Below, in pieces: positions 2,091 through 24,726 of a stretch of DNA of 25,561 nt (the first letter of the stretch is position 1; each line of letters starts with the position of its first letter). Where the stretch lies: positions 1-25,561 of IMG/VR virus record IMGVR_UViG_3300046462_000338. One strand, given 5' to 3'. The stretch is from a virus. Below the pieces are notes generated by a model. That model searched no databases, was not told the origin of the DNA, and saw only the letters and a list, made by a program, of their open reading frames with translations. A program made the translations under genes and the position numbers.

Positions 2091-2681
2091 ATGCGTACCG
2101 CGTTCACAGCACTTCTCGCCGCCTTCATGCTCACCGCCCCGGCCGCCGCCGATACTTATTTCACCCTCGAAACGACCTTGACCGCCTCGCCTAACGTCAT
2201 CCAGGTGGGGGATCGAGCCACATTCACGCTGACCGTAACATTGGTGGCAGACCCGGTCGCCGCTTCAGAAGGAGTGATCATTTTAGGGTCCGCGACGGGC
2301 GGGTTTGCAAATATTTATGATGGCCTTAGCGGCGCATTAATTGGTGGCGGACCTATCCTCGGTCCAAGTGTTCCCGGTCTGCCCTATGTTCAAGAGCTTA
2401 AGTCCGCCCCATACCAAACTCCGGGGGACTTTTTTGCCACTGTTAGCGGAGATATGGAGGTTTCCATAACCTGTTCGCGGGACGCCGCGTCCTGCCCCCG
2501 ACTGGCTAACCCAGAGGGTAATTTCAATCCAGCGGACACCTTCGGATATTTCAGCGCGTCCACCTCCATATCAGTCGTTCCCGGTCCCATCCTTGGCACG
2601 GGCCTCCCCGGCCTCATTCTCGTCAGCGGCGGAATGCTCGGATGGTGGCGGCGAAACCGGAAAGAAGCTAGATGCCAGTAA
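2091..2681 (+). CDS. Secreted protein with VPGP-type C-terminal sorting tail (phage cargo gene)
   Basis: A 196-residue protein with a clear signal peptide (residues 1-20, cut predicted after AAADT-like AxA). The extracellular body is beta-rich, beginning [21 protein letters not shown], which resembles an Ig-like or DUF11-like strand pattern, and has a cysteine pair in [11 protein letters not shown]. The C-terminus is a three-part sorting signal: [13 protein letters not shown], a hydrophobic helix, then WWRRNRK. This is the plan of PEP-CTERM/VPLPA-CTERM proteins handled by exosortase-like enzymes. It is oriented against the surrounding late genes and overlaps the tailspike 3' end by 14 bases, as expected of an independently expressed cargo gene. 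Function of the body is unknown. Start chosen for the signal peptide and a GAGGAAA ribosome site. Confidence 0.8.
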
Positions 2682-5043
2682 TCCTCCAATGCGCCGTAGC
2701 GGCATTGTATCTCACCCTGAGATGAAGAGCGCCGCCTCCTCCGGTAACGTTTGCGCCGAATGCCGTACATGCACTGTCGGAACAGTTAGAGGCTAGACCA
2801 TCTACAATATCATACTCCATACCGTCCTGAACGGAATAGTTGCCATCTGACCCGACATTTCCGGGTAGACTTGAAAATGTTCGGGACAGGCCATTGGCCA
2901 ATCCTGATGTATACCCAGCAGGAAGATTAGGAGTGTTACAGCCGATGAGCGTAATGCCAGTTATCCCGCCTGGATTTGTCGGAACCACCCAATCATCACC
3001 AGTGTGAACTGTGATTTGTCCAACCATATGCTGAGAATTGTTTACGCGATAAGACCCAAAATTTCCGAAGCCAGACAAAGAAATTGTGCCGCCGCCGGAT
3101 GCTGCGCCGCCGCCAGTGCCGCCCGTATAACTGACTGTCGTTCCACTCACGGTCACATTAAATGTGCCGTTTGCCTGCGTCACGTTTAAGCCGGAGACTG
3201 TGGCCTGCGTTCCGCTGGGAAACGACGGAGTTGTGGCCAACGTCAGAACAACAGCACCAGTCCCGGAATTGTATGTGTACGAATTGACCGCAAATCTGTC
3301 TGTGGAAGAGTTACCGACTATTATCGTATTTGCCGATACACCGCTTCCCGTCACTTTCATCCCTAAACCAATCCCGACCCCCGCCGTCAGAGTGCTGAAG
3401 TTTAATATTACACCAGCCCCTCCAGCACTATTGCTGATCGATGCGCCTGCGTCGGTGACGTTATCGGCGTGCTTTCTGCCAAAGCATCCCAACAAAATAC
3501 ATTCATTGGTTCCGCCGGGTGTAAAGTACCACTGAGCCCCATACGTAACACTTGACGGAAGACAGCCCATAAACGTACAGCCAGACAGCCCAGTATCAAT
3601 ATAAATTCCATACTGAGCGGTATATGTCTTCGCAGAGGTGATTGGGTCAACCGCTTCGCCGACCGCTGAACTGCCACCACAGTTGATGAAACTGCAAGAA
3701 GATGCGCCTGTGACATATCCTATGGTGAAATTACCTTCTGTTGTAATTGAAACCAATGACGTGCAAACAATGTTCTGCTTGAAGCGCGAAACGCAGGGCA
3801 CAGGTGATGAAACCACCGAGTTGCGGTTAATTCGATATTTGCCCGCGAACCCCAGACCAAGCCCGCTATCGTTTACAGCTCCACCCCCAGACGGGGAACC
3901 AACCTGTCCAGTTGGGCCTGTGTAGGTGATGGTCGTTCCACTCGCAGCGATCGTATTAGCTGTAATATTAAGTCCGGCAATGTTCAACCCGGAGACTGTA
4001 ATCTGGTCTCCTGGGTTTATGATTGTAGACACAGTCATCGTCAATGTTACAAGTCCAGTGCCGGAGTTGTATGTATAGGAAGCAACGGCGGAATTTGAAT
4101 TGCCATTAGCCGTAACCTGGGCACAGCTTCCGCTGAACGGCACTAGGACCCAATCGGCTAGCGTCGTAAGACCAGACATGAAGATTTCACAGCCTGGAAT
4201 AAACATGGGCTGAGAATTTTGGCCTATAGTTCCACCCACCGTTAGGACATAACTGTTAGCTCCTGATGCTACCGTGCAGGCGCTGGCCCAACCCGCCAAC
4301 ACCCCCATGATCCAGGCAGTGTTGCATTGTTCTATTCCGCATCCGCTGATGGTTGCAGAATTTGACCCATAAAATTGAATAGCAGCCTGATAGGGTGCCC
4401 CACTTCTCCAGCCTTCGATATTAAAATGAAACCCCATAATGCCAAAACTGCCGGTGCTTCCAATCACAGGATCAAAATTCGTTCCTCCGGTGCAATTATT
4501 TAAGCTAGTTTGAAAGACATTATAACCAGAATAAACATTGATCATACCGCCGAAATTGAGATTATTCATTGTCAAGCTGGTGTTGTTTATACGTAATGCT
4601 CCTGATCCAATTACAGAACTGGTATTACTAATGCTTAGATTTGAAATTTCTTCCACGCTGTTGGAGCCATCATCGCCGCAGTCAAAAACAAACCCATTTG
4701 GTAAATTACCAAAAATGGAAGAGGACCAGCGTCCAGCGCCGCGAATGACTCCACTCGTAAAATTAGAACCAATGTTGGTGTTTTTAAGTGAAATTGTACC
4801 CATGACTTTGTAAGCCCCTGGCGGGAAAAACACTATGGCGCTTTTGTTCAGGGTGGAGTACGCCGCATCGATAGCCGCCTGGATTGCCGACGTATCATCG
4901 TGGGTGAAATTGCCCAGCGCGCCAAAGTCTTTGACGTTGAAAACATCAGACCAGCGATCGGCCGGCGTCCGTGTGACGGACAAGCTGGCATTTACCGTAT
5001 TGGTAGACTTGAACAGAACATTCTCGAACGGGACGGTCGTCAT
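2668..5043 (-). CDS. Tailspike with pectate-lyase-like beta-helix
   Basis: Receptor-binding tailspike expected to bind and perhaps depolymerise host surface polysaccharide. In its 791 residues, [33 protein letters not shown] (about 30-62) followed by [13 protein letters not shown] is the classic entry of the Pectate_lyase_3 beta-helix found in phage tailspikes. A long Asn/Ser/Gly-rich helix follows. Two related insertions beginning SYTYNSGTG (about residues 320-395 and 586-660) each end in a Gly-rich loop and look like duplicated carbohydrate-binding or Ig-like modules. The DNA is clearly more AT-rich than the flanking structural genes, suggesting acquisition by exchange. Its ATG overlaps the upstream stop in ATGA. 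Catalytic residues cannot be assigned by eye. Confidence 0.82.
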
Positions 5044-7203: not shown

Positions 7204-7809
7204 ATGGCGATGCCACGAGATACTAGACCGATAAAGCCTCACCCGGCTGTCGATCTGACAAATGTCCAGACCATGCGCACTTATGGGCATGTGGGACCGC
7301 ACGTAGCCGTTACATGTCCGGATTGCCAATCTGTCCGTTGGGTACCGTGCAGCGTGTTTCGACATCAAGTAGTTACGCCGAATTACACAGGTGCATGTAG
7401 ACCATGCTGGACTGCACGGCCTAAACTGTTGAAGACCCGCACGCGACGAAATCCGACTGGGCGTCGTGTCGATGACAAGGGCTACATGAGACTTGGCAAA
7501 AATGCCATTTCTGATGCGGACTTGCCGATGTGGTCGAAAATGAAAGGTACCGCTGGTAGTATTCATGAGCATCGCTGGGTGATGGCGAAGCACCTCGGTC
7601 GCGCACTCACCAGTAGTGAAATGGTCGACCACATGAATGGGAACAAAACGGACAACCGGATTGAGAACTTGCGCCTCTACGTCCGCGGCAAGCAACAGCC
7701 CGGCTCTGCTCCCGGCCACGGCACCTACTACCACGAATGGCAGATGGCACTCCGGCGAGTTGCCGAGATTGAAGGCGCGATCAACGGCCATCTGAGTTTG
7801 CCTTTCTAG
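7204..7809 (+). CDS. HNH homing endonuclease (free-standing)
   Basis: A 201-residue nuclease. A zinc-ribbon-like part (Cys 38, 41, 65, 68) precedes a typical phage HNH core: SIHEHRWVMAKHLGRAL around residue 120, then VDHMNGNKTDNRIENLRLY (about 141-159) with the conserved His143, Asn145 and Asn151. These proteins usually cut a homologous intronless or gene-free allele and so spread themselves. It is the only plus-strand gene between the tailspike and the portal, wedged between two minus-strand virion genes with its stop immediately beside the end of the 7810-8055 gene, as expected of an invading element. An AAGGGGG ribosome site lies upstream. Confidence 0.85.
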   Translation: MAMPRDTRPIKPHPAVDLTNVQTMRTYGHVGPHVAVTCPDCQSVRWVPCSVFRHQVVTPNYTGACRPCWTARPKLLKTRTRRNPTGRRVDDKGYMRLGKNAISDADLPMWSKMKGTAGSIHEHRWVMAKHLGRALTSSEMVDHMNGNKTDNRIENLRLYVRGKQQPGSAPGHGTYYHEWQMALRRVAEIEGAINGHLSLPF

Positions 7810-8066: not shown

Positions 8067-8288
8067 TTATTTTGAATTCGTAACGGTCGAGCCGGCCGTC
8101 GTGATTTGCGGCAGGGCGCGGCCATCGGCGAACGTGATTGTGCCGTTGCCGTAGCTGATCAAGCCTTCACAGTTTTGCGCCGTTCCATTGACCAAAGTGA
8201 ATTTCTCCGAGTTTGGTCCCTGGGCCGGCCAAACGATCGTTGCCGGGTCGCTGCCCTTTTGCGTGTAGATAACTTTGGCCATGGTCAT
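8067..8288 (-). CDS. Small virion-cluster protein
   Basis: A 73-residue protein (MTMAKVIYTQKGSD...) with mixed strands, no transmembrane segment and one Cys. The start at 8288 overlaps the stop of the upstream ADP-ribosyltransferase-like gene in ATGA; a second in-frame ATG two codons later is possible. The sequence NGTAQNCEGLISYGNGTITFADGRALPQIT is not one I can place in a named family. A minor structural role is inferred from its place among virion genes. Confidence 0.6.
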   Translation of the reverse strand: MTMAKVIYTQKGSDPATIVWPAQGPNSEKFTLVNGTAQNCEGLISYGNGTITFADGRALPQITTAGSTVTNSK

Positions 8289-9577
8289 CTAGCCTCTGGT
8301 TGGAACGGAAGAGGGTATTGCTGCTGGCTCGCCGCGCCGCCACCGAGCATGCCGGCTATGCCGTATTTCCGCATGATCTCGATCATCTTCGGATCGAACA
8401 CGACGTAGTTGCTGGTCTGCCCCTCGCCGGATTTTGCGTCGGCAAGCGCGCGAGCCTCTTCGCGGGTCTTAAACGTGGCGTGCGTCTCGCCGCCAGGTCC
8501 CTGAACATGATAGAGGTTTTCGTCCGGACGCAACTCAGTGCGGACGCTGAATTGCGGGCCTGCGCGCGATCCCTGGTCGAGGTACCGGATGCCGGGGATG
8601 CCGGCCTCTTCGTGCAGAATTCTATGCGCAACTTCTGGCGCACCCAATTTCTGAACCAACTGCCCGCCGGTCACATCGCGACCGCCAATTGTGTCCGTAG
8701 CAATCCTCGGCAATTTGCTCTGTATATGCGGCTGCTCGCTCAGCGGCTTATCCCAGTCTAGGAACTGCTCCGGGTGCGCCCCGATGTTTACCTCGTACAT
8801 GTGGCCTTTAATGGGTGCTGGCGTAATCTTCGGAATGTTTCCTCGGTTTAATAAATTTAACGCTTCCGTAAGCATCTGGCGTTCCTGATCATTAGTCGGA
8901 ACTTCCTTCATCAATGTGTTGCGTGCCGCAGCAATATCGCCACCATGCTCATCCACTAATTCAGCTACGGCGTGCGGCACGCTGTTTGGATTAAGAGGTT
9001 CATCACCTACTAATTTTCTTTTTCCAGATAAAGCATCCCGATATTGTTTTGCGACTGCCTCATTCTCGGCCATGTAGAGCCCATGCCCGTAGGCCTGCGC
9101 GCCCTCGCCGGTCCCGATCTTCGACAGGTCGAACTGGGTGAAGTCGTGCGGCGAGCCGTGGTACGCGCGGATACCGGCTCGCTCTGCCGCCTCTGCGCCA
9201 GTTTCAGCCGCGGCATTGAGCGCGCCCTTCGCGCCTGCACCCAGTACACCGGCGGCAAGCTTCGCCGCGCCGCCCACCGGCAGCATGCTGCCGATGTCAA
9301 GCGCCGCAAACGGCACCGGGTTCATCCCGGTCGTCGGCAGCACCTTGCCGGGCTGCGTGATCCCCTGCTGCATGGCGTTGCTGCGCTCGAGAATCTCGCG
9401 GTCGGTCGGGTCGAGATCCATCCAGTACGGCCGCGCCTGCTGCACGACGTTGCCGGCCGCCTCGCGCAGCGCCATGATCGGGTCTTGTGGCTGCGGCACA
9501 GTCTGCCCAGGCTTCGGCACCGCCCACGGATCGTGGTCGACCGGAACCGCAAGGATTGTGCCAAGGTCATCAGCCAC
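8285..9577 (-). CDS. Putative ADP-ribosyltransferase (ART-PolyVal type), possibly an ejected virion protein
   Basis: A 430-residue protein. Residues 1-90 are a Pro-rich leader; 91-130 are a Gly/Ala-rich hydrophobic stretch (DIGSMLPVGGAAKLAAGVLGAG) like those of membrane-interacting ejection proteins. From about 137 it follows the ART fold of phage polyvalent proteins: RAYHGSPHDF (His140), GTGEGAQAYGHGLYMAE (Tyr168, Glu171), and near the end SNYVVFDPKMIEIM with Asp395 where the family often has its last acidic position. ADP-ribosyltransferases move ADP-ribose from NAD to host targets. It overlaps the portal stop by 8 bases and precedes small virion genes, consistent with packaging in the particle. 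Catalysis and delivery are inferred. Confidence 0.7.
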   Translation of the reverse strand: MADDLGTILAVPVDHDPWAVPKPGQTVPQPQDPIMALREAAGNVVQQARPYWMDLDPTDREILERSNAMQQGITQPGKVLPTTGMNPVPFAALDIGSMLPVGGAAKLAAGVLGAGAKGALNAAAETGAEAAERAGIRAYHGSPHDFTQFDLSKIGTGEGAQAYGHGLYMAENEAVAKQYRDALSGKRKLVGDEPLNPNSVPHAVAELVDEHGGDIAAARNTLMKEVPTNDQERQMLTEALNLLNRGNIPKITPAPIKGHMYEVNIGAHPEQFLDWDKPLSEQPHIQSKLPRIATDTIGGRDVTGGQLVQKLGAPEVAHRILHEEAGIPGIRYLDQGSRAGPQFSVRTELRPDENLYHVQGPGGETHATFKTREEARALADAKSGEGQTSNYVVFDPKMIEIMRKYGIAGMLGGGAASQQQYPLPFQPEAR

Positions 9578-12383: not shown

Positions 12384-12643
12384 CACAGCACCTCAGCCTT
12401 GTCTGGCGGCGGAACCGATTTCCAGACCCCCGATTTCCAGACCCAATATCCTATCTTTCGCCACTCCCACTCGTATTGACCGTCACCGTGTTGAACGTCA
12501 CTTATTGCGCGCGTCCGCGGGTGGTCGTGCGTCATTCGCTTGCCGTCAAACGGACCCCCACAACACTCCCCAGTATGATCATTCCATGGCTCCCCCCTCC
12601 GCTTCCCGACCTTTCGCAACATCTTCGCAGTTTCCCGATCCAT
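12383..12643 (-). CDS. Hypothetical phage protein, 86 residues
   Basis: Reads MDRETAKMLRKVGKRRGEPWNDHTGECCGGPFDGKRM and then a Trp/Tyr-rich part (YEWEWRKIGYWVWKSGVWK). The ECCGGPFDGKR block recurs in small phage and bacterial proteins of unknown function. The start overlaps the large terminase stop by one base in TGATG behind AGGTGCTG; the longer frame to 12772 lies inside the terminase gene in another frame and is rejected. Coupled to the terminase, so likely made late. Confidence 0.58.
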   Translation of the reverse strand: MDRETAKMLRKVGKRRGEPWNDHTGECCGGPFDGKRMTHDHPRTRAISDVQHGDGQYEWEWRKIGYWVWKSGVWKSVPPPDKAEVL

Positions 12644-14154
12644 CACAGCACCTGTATGCTGACCGAGCTCGACCGGTCGCTTTCCTCGTCCTCGTCGCGG
12701 TAGCCGTCGCGCGGCGCCTCGGGCACCGGATGAACGGGCAGCCACGGCCGCGACGAGCAGCCATAACGCCACGCATCCGCGCAGTGATCGTCCGAGTTGG
12801 TGTCGAGATCCTCGACCACCTGCGAGTCATGCTGCAGCACCGGGATGGTTCGGATCGAGGCCACGCACGTCGAGAACACGTACAGCATCGGCTTGCCCAC
12901 GGGCTTTCCCTTGCCGTCCAGCTTGCCCACCATGCGCGAGCGCATCTGATCCCAGCCCGACATCGGCCCGCGCTTGTCGTGCGTCCGCGGCACCCGCGTG
13001 TTGTCCGCCTCGTGAAACGGCACCAGGTTGGCGTTGATCAGCTCCATGTTGATCACCTCGGCGATCGGCGGGCCGCCATCCTGCCGGAAGGTGCTGGGAT
13101 CAAGCACGCCATAAGCCAGTTTGGGATCGCGTGTTTCACGTGAGACAATGCCCTTGCCAACCTGGTCCGCCATCAGTTTCAAGCCCCTCGATCCGTCCTG
13201 TGCCGGATCCTGCGATCCGTACCATTCGCGGTAACAGACCAGCGCGCCGCGCGGCAGCACCTGCTTGGTCTTCGGGTGCTGCCAGTCGTCCTGCACCACC
13301 GCCCACCACACGATCGCGAACGGCGACGCAGATCCCCAGTCGGCCGATCGGAACCGCAGCCAGTCGTCGGGCAGCTCGACCGGCGGAATGACCATCCTGA
13401 CGCTCCAGCAGTCGAAAAAGGCGCCCTCGACGATGTCCCAGTCGCCCATCAGCCACGCTTTGACGAGCGCTTCCGAGCCGAGCCCGCGCAGCCGCGCCGC
13501 ATAGCCAGGATCGGCCTGCGTCAGGATGATATTGTCGGTCAGCCGCGCCGGCACGAACATGCGCGACATGCCGGTGGTCGGGTCGTCGATCACCTCGTAG
13601 CCGCCCGGCGCCGGATTGACGAAATACGACTTCACCCAATGATGGCCCGGCCCGCCCGGATTGGCCGCGGCGCGAATGCGCTTGGTCGCGACCTCGCCCT
13701 TTGCCGAGCGCAAGCGGCCTCGCAGATAGCGGTAGGCGCGGTCAGTCGCCCACTGCGTGAGCTCGTCCCATCCGATCCATGTGTATGCGTGCCCGATATA
13801 GCGCTGCCGATCGCGTTCCTGCTCGAGATACCTGAACCGCAAGTGCGCGCCGTTGCGCCATGTGTATGTTTTCTTCTGTTCGTTCCATTCTGCGCCGGTC
13901 TGCGGGTAAAGATCGTGCGCGCGGCCTATCAGTTCCTCGAGCTCGGGATACGTTCGCCTGAACAGCACGCCCTGCCACGCCTCTCCATAGGTCGGCACGT
14001 CGCGCAGGAAGTCGCCGAGCAGGTAGTCCGACTTGCCGCCGCCGGCCGCCCCGCCGTAGAACAGCTCGTTGCACCACGTTGCGTACATCGCCTCGCTTTG
14101 CGGGCCGGGCTGCGGCGCCCATACGCCGCGAGTTGCGCGCTCAATGCCGCTCAT
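12643..14154 (-). CDS. terL: Terminase large subunit (DNA-packaging ATPase/nuclease)
   Basis: Pumps DNA into the procapsid through the portal and cuts it. The 503 residues carry a Walker A loop GGAAGGGKS (34-42), Walker B YTWIGWDE with Asp130-Glu131, a coupling motif AANPGGPGHHW (about 164-173), and an RNase-H-like nuclease with RSADWG (Asp272), GVLDPS (Asp352) and DDHCADAWRY (Asp460). This is the Terminase_6-like set and appears complete. The start overlaps the upstream gene in ATGA. The C-terminal 30 residues are acidic and Ser-rich. A near-consensus parS 16-mer lies inside the gene at 13132-13147. Confidence 0.93.
   Translation of the reverse strand: MSGIERATRGVWAPQPGPQSEAMYATWCNELFYGGAAGGGKSDYLLGDFLRDVPTYGEAWQGVLFRRTYPELEELIGRAHDLYPQTGAEWNEQKKTYTWRNGAHLRFRYLEQERDRQRYIGHAYTWIGWDELTQWATDRAYRYLRGRLRSAKGEVATKRIRAAANPGGPGHHWVKSYFVNPAPGGYEVIDDPTTGMSRMFVPARLTDNIILTQADPGYAARLRGLGSEALVKAWLMGDWDIVEGAFFDCWSVRMVIPPVELPDDWLRFRSADWGSASPFAIVWWAVVQDDWQHPKTKQVLPRGALVCYREWYGSQDPAQDGSRGLKLMADQVGKGIVSRETRDPKLAYGVLDPSTFRQDGGPPIAEVINMELINANLVPFHEADNTRVPRTHDKRGPMSGWDQMRSRMVGKLDGKGKPVGKPMLYVFSTCVASIRTIPVLQHDSQVVEDLDTNSDDHCADAWRYGCSSRPWLPVHPVPEAPRDGYRDEDEESDRSSSVSIQVL
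13132..13147. promoter_or_regulatory. parS-like palindrome inside terL
   Basis: The plus strand reads TGTTTCACGTGAGACA, one base away from the bacterial parS consensus TGTTTCACGTGAAACA, the binding site for ParB partition proteins. It encodes VSRETR (residues 337-342) of the terminase on the other strand, so codon constraint could contribute. No other copy was noticed in the window. Confidence 0.45.
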
Positions 14155-21513: not shown

Positions 21514-22278
21514 ATGAAACGTCTCACACTGGCGGCCATAGCGAGCGCGACGGCGCTGGCCTTCACCGCACCTGCCCAAGCCGACATCGTCCTTTTCGGC
21601 GCAGGCGACATCCTCGGCGCGTTTGTCGACGTTGGTGCGTCAGGGTTCGGTAACGTCCACCGGGCCTTGACTTTGCAGAACAACGGCATCGAGTTCGGCG
21701 CCCACCTGTTCGGCAACGCCTTGCAGGACGAGGCCATCGCCGGGGCTGACAAGGGCGGTACTCCCACCATCGGAGCGTTGGGCTGGAACTCGGGAGCTAA
21801 CGTCGGCATCGGGTTCAACTCGAACCAGACCGGCAACTCCGGCATCACGCTCGACGCCATGCGGCTCACCATCTGGGACACCGCGGGCAATGCGGTGGGC
21901 TCGTTCGCGCTGGCGTCTTCGATCGACTTCAGCGCGGCCATTCTCGCCATCCAACAGGGAAACGGCAACGCCGTTTTCGACTTCGAGCTCGACGCTCAAC
22001 AGAGGGCCGAGTTCAACACCATCCTGGGATTGGCTGGTTCGGCTAACTTCACGGTCGGGCTCAACGCCATCCTTGGCTGCGGTACTACTGCTGAAGGCCA
22101 GACCTTCGGGAGTGGGACCTGCATGTCGTCCAACGACGGAGCGGACAGTTTTGTCTTCTTCGCGCAATCAGCGGCGGCCGTACCCGGCCCGGTTGCTGGT
22201 GCCGGGTTACCTGGGCTGTTCGCGGCGTGTGCGGGCCTCTGGGCGTTCCAGCGGCGTCGGCGCGCGCTCAAGGCCTAA
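21514..22278 (+). CDS. Secreted protein with VPGP-type C-terminal sorting tail (second phage cargo gene)
   Basis: A 254-residue protein with an AAGGA ribosome site, a signal peptide cut after APAQA (residues 1-22), a Gly/Asn/Ala-rich beta body (FGNVHRALTLQNNGIEFGAHLFGN...), and a Cys pair around GCGTTAEGQTFGSGTC. The end VPGPVAGAGLPGL, a hydrophobic stretch, then RRRR closely matches the tail of the unrelated protein at 2091-2681. Such tails are predicted substrates of exosortase-type enzymes that process the motif and move the protein to the surface or matrix; this last step is inferred. It has no similarity in the body to the first, so only the sorting signal is shared. Confidence 0.82.
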   Translation: MKRLTLAAIASATALAFTAPAQADIVLFGAGDILGAFVDVGASGFGNVHRALTLQNNGIEFGAHLFGNALQDEAIAGADKGGTPTIGALGWNSGANVGIGFNSNQTGNSGITLDAMRLTIWDTAGNAVGSFALASSIDFSAAILAIQQGNGNAVFDFELDAQQRAEFNTILGLAGSANFTVGLNAILGCGTTAEGQTFGSGTCMSSNDGADSFVFFAQSAAAVPGPVAGAGLPGLFAACAGLWAFQRRRRALKA

Positions 22279-23561: not shown

Positions 23562-23911
23562 GCCCAGACGATCCCATCACACTCGCCGAAGCCTGCCGGC
23601 TCTACCCTGGCAGCCGGTTCAAGACCGCAACACTGAAATCGGCCGCCGAGAAGGGCTTGCTTGTGATCTTCCGTCTTGGCCGAAGTCTGCATACGACGAA
23701 GGCCTCAATGGATGAGTGGGTGCGTAAATGCCAAGACGCAGGTCGCCGCCGCGGCTCTATCTCGACAGAACCAGGGATCAGTGGATTATCCGAGACGGAA
23801 CGGGCTTCCATCGCACTGGATGCCCTGGAGCAGATCGAGCAGGAGCTGAAAAGAAGCTCTCCGCCTACCTCGCCAAGAAGCACACGCCGCAACGTGGGAG
23901 TGATCCATTGA
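23558..23911 (+). CDS. xis: Excisionase-like HTH protein overlapping the integrase gene
   Basis: A 117-residue protein. ITLAEACRLYPGSRFKTATLKSAAEKGLLVIFRLGRSLHTTKASMDEWVRKC is a winged HTH of the kind found in rhizobial excisionases; the tail contains SSPPTSPRSTRR. Its last 184 bases lie in a different frame inside the integrase gene. I recall rhizobial relatives with the same PPTSP tail opposite the same part of the integrase, so the overlap looks conserved rather than an artefact. Likely steers the integrase to excision. Starts in ATGA after the nuclease. Confidence 0.72.
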   Translation: MSPDDPITLAEACRLYPGSRFKTATLKSAAEKGLLVIFRLGRSLHTTKASMDEWVRKCQDAGRRRGSISTEPGISGLSETERASIALDALEQIEQELKRSSPPTSPRSTRRNVGVIH

Positions 23912-24726
23912 TCGCGGACGTGCTCACCCTCTATGCGCTTGAGGTCGTCCCGCAGAAGCGCTCGGCGCGGAACATCGCCTACAACATTGGCAACCTACGC
24001 CGTTGGTGGGGCGTCAGGCGCGTTTCCGATATCACGGCCAACAATTGCCGCGCCTATGCGGCTACAAAATCCGTGCATGCCGCCCGGTCAGACCTTGAGA
24101 AACTCGCCAGCGCGCTCCAGTACTGGCAGGCCGAGAAGGGCGGCATTGCGATCCTGCCGAGGGTCATCAAACCGGCCCGGCCCGGCAGCCGCGAGCAATG
24201 GCTGACGCGCTCAGAAGCGGCGAGACTGCTTAGCGCGGCGCGACGAGTTCCTCACCTTGCGCGTTTCATCCTGCTGGGCATCTACACCGGCAGCCGATCG
24301 GGTGCGATCCGTGAGGCCGAATGGTCATGGGTGAACTTCCACAGCGGGGTAATGCGCCGCCGCGCCCATGGCGAGGCCGACAGCGCGATCAAGCGCCGGC
24401 CGCCGGTCAAACTGGGATCTAGAATTTTGGCGCACCTGCGCCGCTGGCGCCGCATTGACGGGCCATCTGGCCGCTACATTGTCCATTACAACGGGCAGCG
24501 GATCGCCGATGCTTTCCGCACGAGTTGGCACAAGGCGGTCGCTCGCGCAGGGCTCCCGGATAATGTTACGCCCCACACGCTGCGCCACACCCGTGCCACA
24601 TGGCTGATGCTCGCGGGCGTCGACCTATGGCAGGCCGCGAAGCACCTCGGGATGACGACGCGGGTGCTTGAGGCCACCTACGGGCATCACCGGCCCGACT
24701 TCCAGCGGGACGCCTCAGAAGTATGA
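23728..24726 (+). CDS. int: Tyrosine recombinase (phage integrase)
   Basis: Catalyses integration and excision between attP and attB. The 332 residues contain an N-terminal arm-binding part, a core-binding domain (about 60-150, SDPLIADVLTLYALEVVPQK...), and a complete catalytic set: Arg190 in IYTGSRSGAI, a Lys in the IKRRPPVKLG beta-hairpin, His283-x-x-Arg286 in HTLRHTRA, His306 in AAKHLGM and the nucleophile Tyr318 in EATYGHH. It should be active. The start codon lies inside the excisionase gene. A 22-base direct repeat begins at the integrase stop. Confidence 0.93.
   Translation: MPRRRSPPRLYLDRTRDQWIIRDGTGFHRTGCPGADRAGAEKKLSAYLAKKHTPQRGSDPLIADVLTLYALEVVPQKRSARNIAYNIGNLRRWWGVRRVSDITANNCRAYAATKSVHAARSDLEKLASALQYWQAEKGGIAILPRVIKPARPGSREQWLTRSEAARLLSAARRVPHLARFILLGIYTGSRSGAIREAEWSWVNFHSGVMRRRAHGEADSAIKRRPPVKLGSRILAHLRRWRRIDGPSGRYIVHYNGQRIADAFRTSWHKAVARAGLPDNVTPHTLRHTRATWLMLAGVDLWQAAKHLGMTTRVLEATYGHHRPDFQRDASEV

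What the first reader, a model, noticed from the sequence alone, without database searches (positions are those of the whole stretch)
8285..9577. ADP-ribosyltransferase-like protein encoded between portal and virion genes
The YHGSP...GHGLYMAE...NYVVFDP layout matches ART domains of polyvalent phage proteins, and a Gly/Ala-rich hydrophobic stretch precedes it. Its place next to the portal suggests a protein carried in the virion and ejected to modify host targets at infection. The last acidic residue is Asp rather than the more usual Glu, so activity needs testing.
Basis: partly seen in the sequence, partly recalled or inferred. Interest (0 to 1): 0.58.

Follow-up and report, generated by a model that had tools for sequence, protein, structure and literature searches.

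The report
Phage ADP-ribosyltransferase with swappable loops
A bacterial virus carries, beside its portal gene, an enzyme of the ADP-ribosyltransferase kind that is probably injected into the host, and related viruses appear to swap three segments of it while keeping the catalytic core, which could let them change targets quickly.

Summary
The ORF is real: 430 aa on the MINUS strand, window 8285-9577, overlapping the P22-type portal gene by 8 nt and the next gene by 4 nt. Residues 135-412 form an ART domain: Pfam ART-PolyVal E 4.4e-6 (below its cut-off), a confident AlphaFold model, best structural matches to the cyanophage A4 pre-ejectosome (Z 10.2) and PARP/diphtheria-type ARTs (Z 6-8). It groups with the polyvalent-protein ARTs of phages; delivery from the virion is likely but unshown. 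The gene is accessory: phage phiGT1 has a relative there, its close kin lack it. The unexpected result is mosaicism: four core islands stay alike while the three segments between them are replaced. In 10 of 11 pairs whose flanking DNA is alike (>=78%) on both sides, at least one segment is near background (<=26% identity). In relative L007 another polyvalent-protein domain stands in place of the ART, between the same N-terminus and tail. Best reading: a virion-delivered ADP-ribosylating effector whose segments around the active site are exchanged by recombination. Activity, target and virion presence were not tested.

The parts
8285..9577 (-). ART gene, 430 aa, GTG start; overlaps the portal gene by 8 nt and the next gene by 4 nt
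9182..9577 (-). N-terminal module, residues 1-132, with Gly/Ala-rich stretch 96-132; kept (76% over 126 aa) in L007 where the ART is replaced
   Evidence: mostly low pLDDT
8342..9175 (-). ART domain, residues 135-412
9041..9172 (-). core island 1, residues 136-179: H140 (9158-9160), Y168 (9074-9076), Y179
   Evidence: H140, Y168, Y179 105 of 105
8798..9040 (-). variable segment A, residues 180-260
8732..8797 (-). core island 2, residues 261-282 with FLDWDKP (D274, W275, D276)
   Evidence: Y261 105/105, D276 101/105, D274 91/105
8603..8731 (-). variable segment B, residues 283-325
8564..8602 (-). core island 3, residues 326-338, GIPGIRYLDQGSR with D334 (8576-8578) after strand 4
   Evidence: G326 and G329 105/105, D334 103/105
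8414..8563 (-). variable segment C, residues 339-388, just before strand 5; a small b-b-b-a insert in the window
   Evidence: N390 105/105; D395 87 D + 3 E of 105
8288..8359 (-). C-terminal tail, residues 407-430, ends QQYPLPFQPEAR; kept in L007
9570..11687 (-). P22-type portal gene, immediately upstream
   Evidence: PF16510 E 2.5e-98; phrog_156
12643..14154 (-). large terminase gene
   Evidence: PF03237 2.1e-5; phrog_979 2.6e-37
8067..8288 (-). 73-aa gene translated from the ART stop (ATGA overlap), 77% identical in L001 and L002

Best explanation
The gene encodes a NAD+-dependent ADP-ribosyltransferase effector of the polyvalent-protein (ART-PolyVal) kind, in a short single-effector form. 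SHOWN: ORF, strand, overlap with the portal gene, ART fold by prediction, invariant H-Y-N plus a near-invariant Asp after strand 4, accessory presence in related phages, and replacement of the segments between the catalytic islands. INFERRED: it is made with the portal late in infection, enters the head or ejectosome through its N-terminal region, leaves with the DNA, and modifies a host macromolecule at the start of infection (host takeover or anti-defence). INFERRED: segments A, B and C, which frame the active site, set the target; recombination between phages through the conserved islands exchanges them, so the catalytic core is kept while the target or the escape from host inhibitors changes.
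For: Fold: AF2 domain model mean pLDDT 90.3; second-look alignments rank 9k3a_B (cyanophage A4 pre-ejectosome) Z 10.2, rmsd 4.3, 139 aligned, then tankyrase, diphtheria toxin, PARP2/3/14/15 and an anti-CRISPR (6kyf) Z 6.3-8.1; the first 37 listed entries are ARTs, or in one case an anti-CRISPR that I recall to be an ART, and the next, unrelated row is at Z 4.8. Residue H140 falls on the PARP/diphtheria His by the range starts and N390 on the PARP Glu by the range ends (catalytic residue numbers recalled). 88 of 104 aligned members match ART-PolyVal at E<=1e-3. Delivery: 8-nt overlap with the portal; among same-strand upstream neighbours 12 of 76 match portal phrog_156 and 10 of 76 portal phrog_1216 (a member could match both); relatives fused to internal-virion-protein, lysozyme, DarB-like, PBECR5 and LPD23 regions; vir555 relative lies in a large ORF two genes after an annotated internal virion protein. 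Accessory: phiGT1 has two genes between portal and gp6, pCB2047-A and EBPR podovirus 2 none. Exchange: 10 of 11 pairs with like flanks have a replaced segment; L001/L002 99.1% DNA identity over 3250 nt ending at residue 337, then different segment C; L083/L052 A99 B26 C30 and L083/L090 A44 B98 C8.
Against: No activity, target or virion data for this protein. Foldseek's own PDB search gave no match at E<=0.001 for either model. The Pfam match is under the curated cut-off and covers 40 of 140 profile positions. The third catalytic residue is Asn, not Glu or Asp, so an inactive or altered enzyme is possible. The N-terminal module has low model confidence and no known targeting signal. That the segments set the target is untested; searches for other carriers of the window's own segments A and C found none. 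Most sequences are metagenome contigs.
Confidence: 0.6

Rival explanations
1. An ART-fold pseudoenzyme or binder: NAD or ADP-ribose binding without transfer, because the catalytic Glu position is Asn; used as a structural part of the ejectosome or as a decoy.
For: N390 in 105 of 105; the A4 pre-ejectosome ART has Thr at the equivalent residue 1587.
Against: H140, Y168, Y179, Y261 and N390 are all invariant. ParT is described as R-Y-N and Arr as having its Asp on strand 4, both counted among ADP-ribosylating enzymes (PMC7827354, passages); D334 after strand 4 is 103 of 105. The gene is absent from close kin of phiGT1, so it is no essential structural part there.
Confidence: 0.17
2. An intracellular late or lysogenic effector (superinfection exclusion, anti-defence or toxin) made in the infected cell, not carried in the virion; the place beside the portal is just where accessory genes are tolerated.
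For: Accessory insertion in phiGT1; solo form; the window phage has an integrase (PF00589); the structural list contains an anti-CRISPR ART (6kyf), a kind that can act from inside the cell (recalled).
Against: Overlapping reading frames with the portal make it a late product; relatives are parts of giant proteins with internal-virion-protein and lysozyme regions; the closest solved fold is a pre-ejectosome chain.
Confidence: 0.22
3. The apparent segment exchange is ordinary fast drift, or chimeric metagenome assembly at the conserved islands.
For: Loops evolve faster than cores; islands of 85-97% DNA identity could confuse assemblers; the L001/L002 junction coincides with a drop of flanking identity from 99.1% to 87.6%, that is, an ordinary recombination point.
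Against: Drift: at 4-fold sites pairs such as L056/L074 (88%) are far above random pairs (45, sd 14) yet A is 25% and B 15%, while L021/L028 at 71% keep A 96% and B 97%. Assembly: in WIN/L001, L056/L074, L087/L042 and L083/L090 the DNA on both sides of the gene is of one lineage, so each contig would need several wrong joins inside one gene.
Confidence: 0.12
4. Toxin-antitoxin or DarT-like module with the 73-aa downstream gene as the antitoxin.
For: 4-nt overlap with the small downstream gene.
Against: In phiGT1 the small gene after the ART is also present, 79% identical, in pCB2047-A that lacks the ART; the window's small gene shows no similarity to it, so that test is indirect. No antitoxin family was matched.
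Confidence: 0.04

Closest known systems
ART-PolyVal / Tox-ART-HYD2 domains of phage polyvalent proteins (PF18760; Iyer et al. 2017, PMC5512222)
   Same: H on strand 1, Y on strand 2, NYVVF-type strand 5; phage origin near head genes; relatives inside giant multidomain proteins
   Different: Full Pfam profile not matched; FLDWDKP and YLDQGSR islands; invariant Asn before VVF; single-domain short protein; exchanged segments A-C
ART domain of the cyanophage A4 pre-ejectosome (PDB 9k3a chain B, taken here to be A-4L ORF27 by residue numbers)
   Same: Best structural match of both models, Z 9.8 and 10.2; YHGT and GSGTYF motifs
   Different: 1717-aa protein; no significant sequence match by profile comparison (E 0.16); Thr at the N390 place
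PARP/tankyrase and diphtheria-group ARTs
   Same: Fold and H-Y positions
   Different: Catalytic Glu replaced by Asn; large inserts; no eukaryotic accessory domains
T4 Alt (head-carried ART)
   Same: Proposed mode: carried in the head, injected, modifies host proteins (PMC5512222 section read)
   Different: Alt is of the R-S-E clade; here H and Y
phiGT1_5 of Sulfitobacter phage phiGT1 (QLB38217.1)
   Same: 387-aa solo relative, 32% identity, two genes after the portal and before scaffold and head genes
   Different: Second gene after the portal, no insert in segment C; annotated only as hypothetical
Polymorphic toxins and phage tail-fibre tips
   Same: Constant part with exchanged variable part
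   Different: Here exchange is at three internal segments within one catalytic domain, besides whole-domain replacement in L007

Membership tests
ART superfamily | ART fold | tested here: met
   AF2 plus second-look alignment: 37 top entries all ART or ART anti-CRISPR (recalled for 6kyf), Z 6.3-10.2, next row 4.8; Foldseek E-values not significant
ART superfamily, H-Y class | His on strand 1 and Tyr on strand 2 | tested here: met
   H140 and Y168 105 of 105; strands 136-142 and 167-170
ART superfamily, H-Y-E | Glu on strand 5 | tested here: not met
   N390 105 of 105; position inferred from range ends
ART-PolyVal (PF18760) | Pfam curated score | tested here: not met
   27.9 bits against 31.2, E 4.4e-6, 8-47 of 140 positions; relative L005 reaches 35.0
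ART-PolyVal / Tox-ART-HYD2 | Asp on strand 5 (H-Y-D) | tested here: inconclusive
   D395 at the end of strand 5 is D in 87 of 105; which Asp the authors meant could not be seen; a full-length PF18760 match has Ser there
Polyvalent protein | 2 to 15 different domains in one chain | tested here: not met
   One Pfam domain in the window protein; relatives meet it
Virion-packaged ejected effector | Present in virions and delivered | not testable with these tools
   Context only; phiGT1 virion mass spectrometry is in print but its table and figure could not be read
T4 Alt/ModA/ModB (R-S-E) | Arg, Ser, Glu active site | tested here: not met
   His and Tyr instead
NAD+-dependent transferase | Catalytic activity | not testable with these tools
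   Needs an assay

The most novel reading that the evidence does not exclude
A phage effector diversified combinatorially: one conserved ADP-ribosyltransferase core with three interchangeable segments around the active site, exchanged between phages by recombination at the conserved catalytic islands, plus replacement of the whole catalytic domain between a constant N-terminus and tail. Each phage would thereby carry its own target specificity, in the manner of tail-fibre tips or antibody loops. A side claim is an H-Y-N active site with an invariant Asn and an Asp after strand 4.
Probability: 0.42. Interest if true: 0.76.

Novelty: new variant of a known kind. Interest (0 to 1): 0.56.

Why it matters
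Phage ARTs next to head genes are known, but their targets are mostly unknown. If the three segments set the target, natural pairs that differ in one segment only (L001/L002 in C; L083/L052 and L083/L090 in A, B, C) are ready-made swaps that would show which part chooses the substrate. The invariant Asn at the Glu position gives a direct test of how ARTs without the third acidic residue work, an issue described as unclear for ParT and Tpt1 (PMC7827354, passages).

Tried and rejected
Rejected: D395 as the key catalytic residue. R-S-E/Alt family. The N-terminal match to a small terminase C-terminal domain (Pfam E 0.1, PDB E 0.07) is too weak to use. NCBIfam had no match.

Led nowhere: sequence profile against PDB sequences gave only tankyrase motif-2 matches at E about 2. 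Profile comparison with the A4 ART was not significant. A4 ART relatives: only its own contig. The A4 structure paper is not held. phiGT1 virion mass spectrometry: outline, sections 19 and 40 and passages seen, Table S3 and Figure 1 not. N-terminus scan: 4 loci, L007 the only one without the ART. Window segments A and C as queries: no relatives. L007 replacement domain: one other relative, no Pfam/PHROG match in L007 itself.

Literature on segment exchange in phage ARTs: one search with six terms found 4 papers, seen as a listing only, none of which by title or abstract start describes it; this does not show that it is unpublished.

Rows dropped before counts: L030 (the window), L031 and L048 (same contig as L002) before the domain search; 116 domains gave 105 unique with the window; A2 and A7 leave out L096, 103 of 104 relatives given; 76 of 78 upstream and 70 of 71 downstream neighbours were scanned, near-duplicates dropped; of 24 flank-alike pairs 2 are copies within one protein. 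The 11 pairs come from five groups of sequences, so they are not independent.

Full report
What is there. The window is a virus record of 25,561 bases. The ORF lies on the minus strand at 8285-9577, 430 aa, GTG start. Its start overlaps the end of the P22-type portal gene by 8 nt and its stop overlaps the ATG of a 73-aa gene by 4 nt. Upstream on the same strand are portal and large terminase, downstream a tail-fibre-like PHROG, a Gp80-like protein, a pectate-lyase-like spike and a scaffold-like acidic protein ('scaffold-like' is my reading of composition and place).

Fold. AlphaFold with 104 aligned sequences gave the full protein at mean pLDDT 77.0, with the ART region near 90 and the N-terminus low; the domain alone gave 90.3. 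Foldseek against PDB had no match at E<=0.001 for either model. The second-look aligner, which can only re-rank Foldseek's first 1000, put 9k3a_B, cyanophage A4 pre-ejectosome, first with Z 9.8 (rmsd 4.0, 136 aligned) and 10.2 (rmsd 4.3, 139 aligned), followed by tankyrases, PARPs and diphtheria-group toxins. In the domain search the first 37 of the 50 listed entries are ARTs, counting an anti-CRISPR (6kyf, Z 6.3) that I recall to be the ART AcrIF11; the first unrelated entry is at Z 4.8. BFVD has 26 matches at E<=0.001, several named ART-PolyVal-like. I take 9k3a_B to be A-4L ORF27 because H1426 of that protein falls on H140; the entry's sequence itself was not seen.

Active site. In 105 unique domains (104 relatives and the window) H140, P143, Y168, Y179, Y261, G326, G329 and N390 are invariant; D334 is 103, D276 101, D274 91 and D395 87 of 105. 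The range ends hold a constant offset for PARP1 (e.g. 406 to 1004), tankyrase 2 (410 to 1158), PARP2 (408 to 576) and PARP3 (408 to 532); with the recalled catalytic Glu of each (988, 1138, 558, 514) all four fall on residue 390, if the last strands align without a gap. The range starts put the recalled catalytic His on residue 140. So N390 stands at the Glu position. Iyer et al. give H-Y-D with the Asp in strand 5 for polyvalent ARTs (section read); D395, at the end of strand 5, may be the Asp meant, but it is not invariant here, and a full-length PF18760 match from G052 has Ser there. A review describes ParT as R-Y-N and Arr with its Asp on the fourth strand (PMC7827354, passages), so Asn with a strand-4 Asp is not without precedent.

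Family and context. Protein sizes range from about 270 aa to 3948 aa; large ones carry PBECR5, LPD23, phage lysozyme, inorganic pyrophosphatase or histidine phosphatase domains beside the ART and PHROGs named internal virion protein and DarB-like. Of 76 scanned same-strand upstream neighbours 12 match portal phrog_156, 10 portal phrog_1216, 7 large terminase phrog_2; of 70 downstream neighbours 4 match each of the two portal PHROGs. In 50 contigs of at least 17.2 kb a P22-type portal was found in 16. Two reviews state that phage ARTs often lie near head genes and are probably injected (PMC5512222 section and passages; PMC9503650 passages).

Accessory gene. phiGT1 has two genes, the second a relative of the window ART, between portal and a 75-aa gene. 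In pCB2047-A the portal is followed directly by the homologue of that 75-aa gene (79% identity), and EBPR podovirus 2 has the same order by position. The ART is therefore not needed for building these virions.

Segment exchange. Between the window and L001 the portal is 88%, TerL 97%, the two small downstream genes 77% and 83% identical, but the ART protein 55%. By region: N-terminus 83%, island 1 80%, 184-258 26%, island 2 79%, 285-322 30%, island 3 88%, 339-388 17%, island 4 94%, tail 83%. Among 5460 pairs, the 11 with core identity 90-95% have median identity 23% in A and 31% in B; shuffled controls give 17 (sd 3) for A and 16 (sd 4) for B. Four-fold sites show that this is not old divergence: L056/L074 88%, L089/L107 85%, L087/L042 82% against 45 (sd 14) for 600 random pairs, with A and B at 15-32%; L021/L028 at 71% keep 96% and 97%. 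Four-fold identity alone is inflated by GC-rich codons (many pairs with low core identity pass 75%), so I also required like flanks. 24 pairs have alike DNA on both sides of the gene, 2 of them copies in one protein; 11 of the others have at least 78% on both sides. In 10 of these 11 at least one of A, B, C is at 26% or less; L018/L023 is the exception. They fall into five groups of sequences, four of which show replacement. Segments change independently: L083/L052 A99 B26 C30; L083/L090 A44 B98 C8; L087/L057 A25 B94; L003/L001 A100 B100 C12. In L009/L054, L050/L055 and L070/L067 blastn finds almost nothing alike but the ART region. Segment C is bimodal: 76 of 105 have at most 23 residues, mostly 6, and 29 have 38-62. 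It lies just before strand 5, where R-S-E ARTs have the ARTT loop that governs target choice (PMC7827354 passages); that it does so here is inference.

Domain replacement. L007 keeps the N-terminus (76% over 126 aa) and the last 21 residues (71%) but has some 380 other residues between them. A relative of that stretch, 52% identical, lies in L133 inside a 1770-aa protein directly before an ART of this family, and there overlaps a DUF7178 match (E 4.9e-7). The slot thus takes different domains from the polyvalent pool.

Verdict. The fold is as good as settled. Enzymatic activity is likely, virion delivery likely, target setting by segments A-C plausible; none of the three was tested. The ART itself is a member of a known kind in a short form; the exchange of internal segments is the part I could not match to anything known to me or found in one search.

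Noticed in passing
window 2091-2681 + and 21514-22278 +: Two ORFs end in a PEP-CTERM-like tail (VPGP...GLPGL, hydrophobic stretch, basic end); no Pfam match at 0.01. Odd in a phage record; the label is recalled.
   Followed up: partly
window 7204-7809 +: HNH_3 endonuclease gene on the opposite strand inside the minus-strand virion operon (PF13392).
   Followed up: partly
window 23728-24726 +: Tyrosine integrase (PF00589): the phage is probably temperate.
   Followed up: no
L007 737-1885; L133 about 3001-4116: A domain standing in place of the ART, in L133 overlapping a DUF7178 match; two viral loci only.
   Followed up: partly
window 8414-8563 -: The segment C insert looks like a free-standing b-b-b-a unit: matches to WRINKLED1 (Z 4.5, rmsd 2.0), 9jwa (Z 4.8, 31% identity) and a Dicer dsRBD (Z 3.0).
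   Followed up: partly
L102 2826-14129: 3768-aa protein with tandem ART copies; the first has lost FLDWD and YLDQ but keeps the Asn.
   Followed up: partly
L126 3540-9464 (vir555): A relative of this ART in a virus assigned to methanogenic archaea, in a large ORF two genes after an annotated internal virion protein.
   Followed up: no
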